Assembly: GCA_003021505.1 (NCBI GenBank) | Contig: PXPT01000121.1 | Span: 1-40,194, forward strand | Reading direction: 5' to 3' | Origin: Cyanobacteria bacterium QS_4_48_99 | GTDB lineage: Bacteria > Cyanobacteriota > Cyanobacteriia > Cyanobacteriales > Rubidibacteraceae | DNA length: 40,194 nt | Shown: positions 37,131 to 39,083 of the stretch, piece after piece | How positions within the stretch are numbered: the first letter of the stretch is position 1 | Layout: each line of letters starts with the position of its first letter | Program-made: the position numbers and the translations under genes | Notes under the pieces: generated by a model | Seen by the model: the letters and a program-made list of their open reading frames with translations, nothing else | Databases searched by the model: none | Told to the model about the DNA's origin: nothing

Positions 37131-37403
37131 CTAAACGCTTGTCAGTTTCACTAATTTATCAAGAGTGTTGCGAACCGATACCCGTAGTTGTGCTTCGCTC
37201 AGATCAAACCAAGGATCTTCAATTAGTTCTGGATTAGAGCAATAGGCATCTACGTCACTAAACAACTGATCCAAAATCTGAAACTCCCTTGGTGAGAGCA
37301 AATCACTTTCATTTTTAAATAGCTGTAAAAACTGCTCCTCAAACTCCTCAGCGCTCTTTTTCTCAGTTACAAAATCTTTCAGCAACACTATATACTTATT
37401 CAT
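37131..37403 (-). CDS. Colicin D-type immunity protein
   Basis: A 90-residue, strongly acidic, all-helical protein similar in length and charge to ImmD of E. coli (87 residues), which mimics tRNA and blocks the nuclease site. Segments: [59 protein letters not shown]. The ATG overlaps the stop of the upstream toxin gene (ATGA), so the two are translationally coupled and the antidote is made after the toxin. Identification rests on the match to the colicin immunity family and on the neighbouring gene. Confidence 0.8.
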
Positions 37404-37708
37404 CTATCCACCCCAAGTTTTCCAGTAGTAATCACTGCCTGAACTTGAAAAGAATTAAGCCTCCAGCCGCTAATATAATTATCTGTTTTGTCCACAATGA
37501 CATCCAAATTAGTCTTAAGATCGAAGTGATGTGTCACTGGCTGAGTACGATATGTCCCTGAGATAACCTGTACTCTGGCTTGCTGCACATGAGCTTTAAG
37601 ATTGGCTGCGAAAGCTGTGGCTGTCTGTAAATTGTAATCGCCTGAAATTCCAAAATCAGCAGCGTGTTTGAATTTCTTTTGAAGTTGACGCTCAGAAATT
37701 AGAATCAT
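37400..37708 (-). CDS. Stand-alone colicin D-type tRNA nuclease domain
   Basis: A 102-residue protein that is almost only the catalytic C-terminal domain of colicin D-type toxins, which cleave tRNA-Arg anticodon loops. It starts RQLQKKFKHAADFGI, in which the His of the KHAxDFG motif corresponds to the colicin D catalytic His, then VQVISGTYRTQPVTHHFD, LDVIVDKTDNYISGW and SFQVQAVITTGKLG. There is no receptor-binding, translocation or pre-toxin domain and an in-frame stop lies 9 bases before the ATG, so it is an orphan tip or an intracellular toxin of a toxin-antitoxin module. Its start is only 24 bases from the divergent gene at 37733. The immunity gene follows with an ATGA overlap. Confidence 0.8.
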   Translation of the reverse strand: MILISERQLQKKFKHAADFGISGDYNLQTATAFAANLKAHVQQARVQVISGTYRTQPVTHHFDLKTNLDVIVDKTDNYISGWRLNSFQVQAVITTGKLGVDR

Positions 37709-37732
37709 ACTAGCTCAACGAGGAGCAAATCT

Positions 37733-38167
37733 ATGTCAGTGGCTTTATCTCTTACTAAAATTCGACTCCACCACCGCTTCTCTATCCTTGTCATAGCTAG
37801 CATTTTGTGTGCGGGCGTAAGTATGATGTTGCCTAATGCTGCGGTTGCCGTTCCCCATTCTTCCTGCTCAGAAACCAAGGAAATGTCTAATCATCTGCCT
37901 GAAGCTGTGGCTCGTGCAGTTCTGCAACATGCTTCTCAGCAGTCAGGTTTGCCTATTTCCAAACTTCGGATAGTGGAGTCGCAACAACGGAATTGGTCCG
38001 ATGGCTGTCTCGGTCTTGCTGAACCCGGTATACTCTGTACCCAGGCGATCGTCGAGGGGTGGCGTGTGGTTGTTTCACATAACGAGCAAACCAGAGTCTA
38101 TCGCACTGATAGCCAGGGAACCCAGGTACGCTTAGAAACTTTAGAAACTGATCCGGCTGAGAATTAG
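37733..38167 (+). CDS. Exported hypothetical protein with conserved Trp/Cys motif
   Basis: A 144-residue protein with a signal peptide (FSILVIASILCAGVSMMLP, cleavage near AVAVPHSS). The mature part has LPEAVARAVLQHASQQSGLP, then the motif WSDGCLGLAEPGILCTQA and VEGWRVVVSHNEQTRVYRT, which recurs in cyanobacterial secreted proteins. Two Cys (in DGCLGL and ILCTQ) may form a disulfide. The function is unknown. ATG 37733 with an excellent GAGGAG Shine-Dalgarno about 9 bases upstream. It begins 24 bases from the divergent toxin gene, so the two promoters must overlap neighbouring coding sequence. Confidence 0.75.
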   Translation: MSVALSLTKIRLHHRFSILVIASILCAGVSMMLPNAAVAVPHSSCSETKEMSNHLPEAVARAVLQHASQQSGLPISKLRIVESQQRNWSDGCLGLAEPGILCTQAIVEGWRVVVSHNEQTRVYRTDSQGTQVRLETLETDPAEN

Positions 38168-38219
38168 CACAGGAAGCCTGTAGGCGATTTGATGGCAGCG
38201 ATTGGCGCAGTTACGCCCC

Positions 38220-39083
38220 ATGAATCCAGAGTGGCTCCACACGCAGCAGTTCCCTTTCAAAAGCAGGTTTGTCGAAATTGATTGCCATCTCATCCACTAT
38301 GTCGATGAAGGTAGCGGATCAACCCTACTGTTACTTCATGGCAATTCTACCTGGTCGTTTCTTTATCGAGAAATTATCAAAGGACTGCGAGACGATTTTC
38401 GTTGCGTGGCAGTTGACTATCCAGGATTCTGACTCTCGCAAGCTGCATCAGGCTATGGTTTCACTCCCCAATAACACTCCCTAATCATCGAGCAGTTGGT
38501 GCAAAAGCTTGACTTGAGAAAAATTACCCTGTTTTGTCATGATTGGGGCTGTCCCATTGGTCTTGGACTAGCGGGACGACAGCCAGAACGCTTCCGAGGA
38601 TTCGTGATTGGCAACACCTTTGCTTGGTCTGTCAACGGCAACTTGAAGCTTGAGGCTTTTTCTCGCTTGCTGGGTGGTGCAATGGGAGGCTTTTTGATCC
38701 GCAACTTCAACGCTTTTGTTAACCTAATCTTACCTCTGGGGATGCAGCACCCTCCTCACCGCACAGTGATGCAACACTATCGCCGACCTTTTTCTACCCG
38801 TGCCTCACGGGAGGTGAATCGGATCTTTGCCTGGGAGATTCTTGGCAGCCGTCCGTTTCTTGAGCAAGTCCATCAAGGTGTATCCCAACTTGCCCATAAG
38901 CTAACGCTAATTTTGTGGGGCGCGCGCAATCCTGCTTTCACTCGCCAGCAATGTCTTAGATTTGAGCAGTTATTCCCTAACTCCCAAACTGTTATTCTTC
39001 CAAATGCAGGTCACTTCATCGCCGAAGACGCACCAGCGCAGATAGTTGAGCAGTTCCGCTTCTGGTGGCAGGTTAAGGGCTAA
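38220..39083 (+). pseudogene. Haloalkane-dehalogenase-like alpha/beta hydrolase with two in-frame stops
   Basis: A single reading frame reads through as one hydrolase if two codons are ignored: TGA at 38430-38432 (expected Gly, GGA) and TAA at 38472-38474 (expected Gln or Glu). Around them the frame gives HGNSTWSFLYRE, AVDYPGF(*)LSQAASGYGF, TPQ(*)HSLIIEQLVQKLD, FCHDWGCPIGLGL with the nucleophilic Asp and VILPNAGHFIAEDAP with the catalytic His. The family is the haloalkane dehalogenase-like group. There is no frameshift, only two point substitutions, so the decay is recent or the stops are sequence errors. A TTG at 38202 and a TTG at 38496 could start fragments but give partial proteins. Confidence 0.85.

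What the first reader, a model, noticed from the sequence alone, without database searches (positions are those of the whole stretch)
37131..37708. Orphan colicin D-type tRNase with its immunity protein as a two-gene module
A 102-residue protein matches only the catalytic tip of colicin D-like toxins (KHAADFG and the GTYRTQPVTHHF segment), directly followed by a 90-residue acidic immunity protein with an ATGA overlap. Delivery domains are absent. It could be a solitary toxin-antitoxin system using a bacteriocin nuclease, or a detached tip of a polymorphic toxin kept for protection. The toxin-first order with coupling is the reverse of most TA systems.
Basis: partly seen in the sequence, partly recalled or inferred. 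Interest (0 to 1): 0.75.

Follow-up and report, generated by a model that had tools for sequence, protein, structure and literature searches.

The report
Stand-alone colicin D-type tRNase–immunity pair
A bacterium, probably a cyanobacterium, carries just the killing part of a bacterial warfare toxin beside its antidote, with no part for delivering it to other cells; relatives keep the same pair, so it probably acts inside its own cell rather than as a weapon.

Summary
The 102-aa product is the colicin D tRNase domain alone (Pfam 2.6e-18; model TM 0.84 to solved colicin D), followed by a 90-aa ImmD-type immunity protein (Pfam 1.8e-17; Z 12.1 to ImmD). The five residues listed as essential in colicin D are present. 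An in-frame stop just upstream rules out a fused delivery domain, and the genome has no RHS, TPS or phage-sheath match.

It is not a one-off: 9 of 388 genomes of the order carry the toxin, all free-standing, six with open frames and three broken. All six open toxins have their immunity gene. Three genomes with broken toxins keep an open immunity gene; one lost both. Measurable dN/dS among open toxins is 0.15-0.25. In one genus the pair lies at a variable site beside ParE/RelE modules and, in one genome scanned, a second stand-alone toxin-immunity pair.

Best reading: an intracellular, toxin-antitoxin-like tRNA nuclease module built from polymorphic-toxin parts. The chemistry is inferred from homology; the role is unproven. 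The ATGA overlap is peculiar to the window among eight related junctions, and toxin-first order is ordinary for toxin-immunity pairs. Orphan CDI/Rhs pairs are the known precedent: new variant of a known kind.

The parts
37400..37708 (-). toxin gene: stand-alone colicin D-type tRNase domain, 102 aa; predicted active site K11, K12, H15, D18, S80 (W82 also kept)
   Evidence: Pfam PF11429 2.6e-18; PDB colicin D by sequence and by fold, TM 0.84, E 5.5e-9; residues checked and mapped by the alignment to colicin D K607, K608, H611, D614, S677, which PMC3482391 lists as essential
37131..37403 (-). immunity (antitoxin) gene: ImmD-type four-helix protein, 90 aa, acidic
   Evidence: Pfam PF09204 1.8e-17; VIA-align Z 12.1, rmsd 1.8 over 83 residues to ImmD chain 1v74_B; Foldseek ranks 1-2 are ImmD, E 5.8e-3 and 1.3e-2
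37400..37403 (-). ATGA overlap of toxin stop and immunity start
   Evidence: not seen in the other seven related junctions
37404..37423 (-). 20 bases before the immunity start, inside the toxin's last codons: Shine-Dalgarno-like GGGGTGG stretch for the immunity gene
   Evidence: anti-SD pairing -9.4 kcal/mol here, not beyond shuffles (163 of 500 as strong); -14.0 in six of the other seven relatives, where 1-14 of 500 shuffles are as strong; none in G078

Best explanation
A free-standing, two-gene toxin-immunity module that works inside its own cell like a toxin-antitoxin system. The first gene makes a bare colicin D-type nuclease that, like colicin D, should cut the anticodon loop of arginine tRNAs and stop translation. 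The second makes an ImmD-type inhibitor that occupies the tRNA-binding surface. The toxin gene has a weak ribosome-binding site while the immunity gene is read from one embedded in the toxin's last codons, so immunity should normally be in excess; loss or lag of immunity (gene loss, stress, infection) would free the nuclease. Shown by computation: both families, both folds, conserved active site, no delivery domain in frame, recurrence as an open pair in six genomes of four genera, constraint on the toxin. Inferred: tRNA cleavage, inhibition, excess of immunity. Not shown: what frees the toxin and what selects for the module.
For: Families and folds. Start codon present in each of the six open toxins (five ATG, one GTG), with an upstream stop close by in the window. 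Order survey: 9 of 388 genomes, all free-standing. All six open toxins have immunity; immunity is missing only in G525, whose toxin is broken. dN/dS of open toxins 0.15-0.25 in the 9 of 15 pairs where it can be computed. Host genome G000 has no RHS, TPS or phage-sheath match. In genus g11 the pair sits divergently beside galT in five genomes, and neighbours include Unstab_antitox/ParE and RelE modules. Precedent that orphan Rhs toxin-immunity pairs act as type II TA: PMC7043789 (abstract and outline).
Against: No toxicity, cleavage or binding data. No DNA-binding domain in the immunity protein, so no sign of the autoregulation of classical type II TA. Toxin broken in three of the nine order genomes with a toxin match (plus remnants in G594 and G612), so it is often dispensable. 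Weak ribosome-binding sites are common in the window: four of six neighbouring genes tested are at -3.7 kcal/mol or weaker, and the window's own immunity site is not beyond shuffles. In G567 the K607 equivalent is Ala and the conserved Trp is Arg, so not every open toxin is surely active. No PADLOC match of weight.
Confidence: 0.55

Rival explanations
1. Detached tip of a polymorphic toxin, kept mainly for its immunity gene, which protects against neighbours that deliver the same nuclease.
For: Open immunity genes survive beside broken toxins in G616 and G129, and beside a deletion remnant in G594. Orphan pairs at CDI loci are thought to be retained for immunity (PMC4927057 passages). Colicin D domains in most GTDB relatives have a possible long N-terminal extension (21 of 29 loci). 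TPS proteins occur in 7 of 9 genomes tested.
Against: Six toxins stay open with low dN/dS, not expected if only immunity mattered. CDI orphans usually lack a start codon (PMC9086364 passage), whereas these have one. No fused colicin D copy was found in the order: 0 of 388 genomes; one fused copy in another order of the phylum sample.
Confidence: 0.22
2. An effector delivered in trans: the bare toxin is loaded onto a secretion apparatus as cargo and used against other bacteria.
For: Toxin-first order and immunity pairing are those of secreted effectors. Small cargo effectors are known in general (recalled).
Against: No RHS, TPS or phage-sheath match in G000; no sheath match in any of 9 genomes. 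Type VI, type VII and MuF routes were not searched, so this is not excluded.
Confidence: 0.1
3. Silent cassette held in reserve for recombination into a full-length polymorphic toxin.
For: Solo cassettes accompany polymorphic toxin loci in general (PMC3482391 passages). Genome G622 has a second solo toxin-immunity pair beside it.
Against: No RHS or TPS recipient found in G000; only about seven residues precede the domain, so there is no upstream homology arm; own start codon.
Confidence: 0.05
4. A decaying horizontally acquired remnant with no present function in this host.
For: Low GC and GC3 against the window (toxin 40.5%, GC3 33.0; window 47.9%; ORF GC3 mean 46.2, sd 4.9). The last residues of the window toxin differ from the GGG ending of the relatives. 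Broken copies are frequent.
Against: Both frames open, domain complete, active site kept, high-confidence fold (pLDDT 95.5), dN/dS 0.16-0.25 against the g11 copies although dS is 1.0-1.6 and so imprecise.
Confidence: 0.08

Closest known systems
Colicin D C-terminal tRNase domain and ImmD (PDB 1v74, 1tfo, 1tfk)
   Same: Same nuclease family and fold, same five essential residues, same immunity family and fold, same toxin-immunity gene order.
   Different: Colicin D carries receptor-binding and translocation parts; the 102-aa protein here has none. By sequence the two toxins share about a third of residues (33-34%).
Orphan CdiA-CT/CdiI and Rhs-CT/RhsI modules
   Same: Nuclease tip without delivery part beside its immunity gene; orphan Rhs pairs of Salmonella were reported to work as type II TA (PMC7043789, abstract).
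   Different: Those lie beside a full delivery gene and CDI orphans usually lack a start codon (PMC9086364 passage); here no RHS or TPS gene was found in the genome and the toxin has its own start.
Type II toxin-antitoxin modules with BECR-fold nucleases (RelE, HigB, ParE)
   Same: Small chromosomal two-gene RNase-inhibitor operon, patchy distribution; colicin D and RelE share the BECR fold (PMC3482391 passage).
   Different: Toxin comes first, inhibitor is a dedicated immunity protein without DNA-binding domain, and the sequence family is colicin D, not RelE.
Solo phage BECR domains (PBECR, PMC5512222 passage)
   Same: Free-standing BECR-fold RNase domain.
   Different: Different families, phage-encoded; the window toxin found no relative in IMG/VR and one weak match in 50,697 phage records.

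Membership tests
Colicin_D nuclease family (PF11429) | score above curated cut-off over the whole domain | tested here: met
   66.6 bits against 25; profile 1-82 of 84
Colicin_D nuclease family (PF11429) | essential residues K607, K608, H611, D614, S677 (list from PMC3482391) | tested here: met
   K11, K12, H15, D18, S80 in the window; mapping by the alignment is mine
Colicin_D nuclease family (PF11429) | colicin D catalytic fold | tested here: met
   TM 0.84, rmsd 1.6, E 5.5e-9 to 1tfo_A
Colicin_D nuclease family (PF11429) | cleavage of tRNA-Arg between positions 38 and 39 | not testable with these tools
   needs an assay; activity from PMC9990079 passage
Colicin-type bacteriocin (whole toxin) | receptor-binding and translocation domains in the same protein | tested here: not met
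   102 aa; stop with two codons before the ATG; Pfam finds only Colicin_D
ImmD-type immunity family (PF09204) | score above curated cut-off and ImmD fold | tested here: met
   64.2 bits against 22; Z 12.1 to 1v74_B, next unrelated row 8.3
ImmD-type immunity family (PF09204) | binds and blocks its cognate nuclease | not testable with these tools
   no complex prediction on hand; opposite charges only
CDI/Rhs orphan module | lies beside, or in a genome with, a full-length delivery gene of that kind | tested here: not met
   no RHS_repeat or TPS match in G000; the draft genome has 196 contigs, 99.9% complete by the tool's figure
CDI/Rhs orphan module | toxin lacks its own start codon and begins at a PT motif (CDI; PMC9086364 passage) | tested here: not met
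   own start in each of six open toxins
Type II toxin-antitoxin | two-gene operon of small toxin and protein inhibitor | tested here: met
   adjacent overlapping ORFs of 102 and 90 aa; inhibition inferred
Type II toxin-antitoxin | antitoxin gene first, antitoxin with DNA-binding domain for autorepression (usual, not universal) | tested here: not met
   toxin first; only Colicin_immun above cut-off, Trans_reg_C 0.025 below cut-off
Type II toxin-antitoxin | toxin arrests growth, inhibitor rescues | not testable with these tools
   needs expression
Known anti-phage defence systems (PADLOC) | match to a PADLOC model | tested here: inconclusive
   window toxin: RT 0.0034 and PDC-M05B 0.0093, 14-15 bits, likely chance; immunity none; three other stand-alone toxins none at 0.01

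The most novel reading that the evidence does not exclude
A bacteriocin-type anticodon nuclease has been domesticated in one bacterial order as a chromosomal toxin-antitoxin or abortive-infection module: it is kept and lost at variable chromosomal sites like other TA genes, with its inhibitor's ribosome-binding site written into the toxin's conserved GGG tail so that inhibitor synthesis tracks toxin translation, and it frees a tRNA-Arg nuclease when translation or immunity supply is disturbed, for example by phage.
Probability: 0.35. Interest if true: 0.7.

Novelty: new variant of a known kind. Interest (0 to 1): 0.48.

Why it matters
If true, it links two kinds of system that are usually treated apart: secreted bacteriocin or polymorphic toxins and intracellular toxin-antitoxin modules. 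Here the same nuclease-inhibitor pair persists without delivery parts across four genera with open frames, which makes the question of what selects for orphan toxin-immunity pairs directly testable in a small, well-understood enzyme with a solved reference complex.

Tried and rejected
Chance similarity: rejected on Pfam, PDB and fold matches. Fusion to an upstream delivery frame in the window: rejected by the upstream stop. ATGA overlap as a conserved coupling device: rejected for this family. Phage origin: IMG/VR scan gave 5 pattern matches and no relative; the scan looks for near-exact peptides of the window toxin, so distant ones can be missed; 1 weak phage record. Plasmid origin: 49 records, 39 Escherichia, 5 Serratia, 4 Klebsiella, 1 Raoultella, all under 60% identical; the features shown are mostly colicin-D or pyocin-type proteins, some unannotated. 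Promoter and terminator scan: 1 promoter-like and 1 terminator-like site on the + strand, no more than shuffles, none on the toxin's strand. Empty site beside comB in the family: not found; the ORF 37733 relatives in four genomes had none of comB, abh or prmC within the loci held. Single origin of stand-alone copies: one change fits the tree but with support 42/42 and 39% of 200 bootstrap trees, so not shown. NCBIfam: no useful toxin match (UbiB 0.084). In one search, 23 of the 29 galT-type loci showed no toxin sequence upstream. G437 immunity match (9.4e-4, three stops inside) was dropped as doubtful. The residue invariance in alignment A1 is partly built in, because the relatives were fetched with patterns such as QLQKKFKH.

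Full report
What is there. On the minus strand of the window lie two overlapping ORFs, 37400-37708 (102 aa) and 37131-37403 (90 aa). The first matches Pfam Colicin_D at 2.6e-18 over residues 8-90, the second Colicin_immun at 1.8e-17. phmmer finds colicin D chains in the PDB at 9.2e-11 to 1.2e-9 for the toxin; the immunity protein has no sequence match of weight there. A stop with two codons between it and the ATG means no delivery domain is in frame. The residues listed as essential for colicin D (K607, K608, H611, D614, S677; PMC3482391 passage) align with K11, K12, H15, D18 and S80.

Folds. The toxin model (24 sequences, pLDDT 95.5) matches colicin D best: 1tfo_A at E 5.5e-9, TM 0.84; the next family is a CdiA toxin tip, 8ey4_A, E 1.3e-2, TM 0.60. 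The immunity model (13 sequences, pLDDT 90.7) has ImmD chains as Foldseek ranks 1 and 2, although no Foldseek match reaches 0.001 (E 5.8e-3 and 1.3e-2). By VIA-align ImmD scores Z 12.1 (rmsd 1.8 over 83 residues) against 8.3 for the next unrelated row. For helical proteins a Z under about 13 alone could be a common arrangement, so the Pfam match carries the assignment.

How common, and in what form. The window's genome (G000; 3.62 Mb, 196 contigs) has one copy. Of 386 genomes sampled across the phylum 5 match Colicin_D; of 388 in the order 9 match, and the two samples overlap. Together they give ten genomes: nine with free-standing short frames and one, G038 from another order, with the domain at the end of a 493-aa protein. 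Six of the nine are open (G000, G352, G559, G622, G078, G567; four genera, four families). Three are broken: G616 has an internal stop, G525 a frame change, G129 lacks the N-terminal part with the catalytic motif. In the one genus with several carriers (29 genomes) the search finds 5, and remnants were seen in two more: G594 (deletion remnant) and G612 (C-terminal piece). Beyond this order, 29 loci were fetched from GTDB genomes with patterns from the window toxin. In 21 of 29 the frame allows an N-terminal extension of 68 residues or more; four (L015, L019, L021, L022) have a full domain with a short N-terminus; four are cut or broken. Immunity was recognised by tblastn in 18 of the 29.

Immunity follows the toxin. 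A Colicin_immun search of the ten genomes finds it in nine; the exception is G525, whose toxin is broken. In the order, 10 of 388 genomes match, which adds G594 (immunity open, toxin a 26-residue remnant) and a doubtful match in G437. So no open toxin was seen without immunity, and three broken or deleted toxins (G616, G129, G594) retain open immunity genes. That order of loss is expected whenever the toxin is harmful and immunity is not; it fits both the intracellular reading and the protection reading.

Selection. Nei-Gojobori dN/dS among the six open toxins is 0.15-0.25 in the 9 of 15 pairs where it can be computed; six pairs are saturated, and pairs share branches. The cleanest pairs, inside genus g11 (dS 0.18-0.56), give 0.24, 0.17 and 0.17. 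Window against g11 gives 0.24, 0.25 and 0.16 at dS 1.0-1.6, imprecise. Immunity values that can be computed run from 0.13 to 0.48. G567 departs at two conserved places: Ala for the K607 equivalent and Arg for the conserved Trp. The window toxin groups with the three g11 toxins at 98/95; whether the stand-alone copies share one origin is open.

Surroundings. In the window the neighbours are a 2-phosphosulpholactate phosphatase gene, PrmC-like and Tic22-like genes, and a small secreted-looking ORF; no transposase or toxin gene was recognised among the nine proteins scanned. In g11 five genomes carry the pair divergently beside the same galT-like gene. Of 29 galT-type loci from 28 genomes, 6 have toxin sequence upstream, others have WD40-repeat genes or unrelated ORFs, so the site is variable. 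Neighbours that I scanned include an Unstab_antitox/ParE pair (G616), a RelE-type gene (G559), ParE (G129, another genus), and in G622 a BURPS668_1122-type deaminase toxin (1.1e-17) followed by a SUKH protein (1.8e-11), a second stand-alone polymorphic-toxin pair. G525 has look-alike ORFs of that second pair (by resemblance, not scanned).

Delivery. Of nine carriers tested, RHS repeats are found in 4, TPS domains in 7 and phage sheath in 0; G000 has none of the three. Type VI, type VII and MuF routes were not searched.

Expression logic. In seven of eight junctions read, the 20 bases before the immunity start lie in or at the end of the toxin gene; in six of them GGAGGTGGA, which also encodes the toxin's GGG tail, pairs with the anti-SD sequence at -14.0 kcal/mol, in the window the altered GGGGTGG stretch at -9.4; G078 has neither. 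The toxins' own starts pair at +2.1 to -2.8. Against over-reading: the window's value is matched by 163 of 500 shuffles, four of six neighbouring genes in the window also have weak sites, and the anti-SD sequence is recalled. The ATGA overlap is the window's alone among these eight.

Mechanism. Colicin D cuts tRNA-Arg between positions 38 and 39 with His611 as general base (PMC9990079 passages), and ImmD is described as a tRNA mimic (title in the reference list of PMC9086364). With family, fold and residues conserved, the same chemistry is the likeliest here. With no delivery part, an own start codon, a constrained toxin and an immunity gene that looks better translated, I judge an intracellular TA-like module most likely (0.55), retention for protection next (0.22).

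What is known. Solo toxin cassettes beside polymorphic toxin loci (PMC3482391 passages), displaced CDI orphans (PMC4927057 and PMC9086364 passages) and orphan Rhs pairs acting as type II TA (PMC7043789 abstract) are in print. The row for Tox-Colicin D in PMC3482391 does not list cyanobacteria. Archaeal colicin D loci have been read as polymorphic toxin systems (PMC6393860 passage). Nine searches of the open-access library showed no paper on a stand-alone colicin D-ImmD pair as a TA module; subscription journals and preprints are largely not held, so this is weak. I file it as a new variant of a known kind.

Noticed in passing
L051:746-1782 (genome G622); look-alike ORFs at L054:6799-7819 (G525): A stand-alone BURPS668_1122-type deaminase toxin with a SUKH immunity protein beside the colicin D pair: a second polymorphic-toxin tip without delivery part.
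   Followed up: partly
upstream of the galT-like gene, loci L066-L094: Variable chromosomal site in one genus: colicin D pair, ParE/RelE modules, WD40-repeat genes or other ORFs in different species.
   Followed up: partly
L019, L021, L022 and the cut L032: Other short colicin D proteins outside the window's order, with a shared short hydrophobic N-terminus (for example IKNYIRLLIWKC); three of them have immunity downstream. Possibly another stand-alone lineage or a membrane-directed form.
   Followed up: no
window 37709-37732: Only 24 bases separate the toxin start from the divergent ORF 37733-38167, so each promoter would have to lie within the other gene; toxin transcription start is unclear.
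   Followed up: no
window 38202-39083: An alpha/beta hydrolase (Pfam Abhydrolase_1 on the second piece) appears as two ORFs, 38202-38432 and 38496-39083, as if the gene were interrupted.
   Followed up: no
window 37131-37403: The immunity protein matches the C-terminal part of NCBIfam AbxC, a monothiol bacilliredoxin, at 3.8e-10 though far below its cut-off: an immunity-like domain fused to a redox protein, and Colicin_immun also rings in Deinobacterium chartae.
   Followed up: no
H1, MT121968.1:8551-8799: A Pseudomonas phage record has a 31% identical colicin D-like stretch with no annotated gene.
   Followed up: no
control genome: Colicin_D also rings in the archaeon Methanosarcina acetivorans; Halovivax (L010) and Haloferax (L018) carry relatives with immunity.
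   Followed up: no
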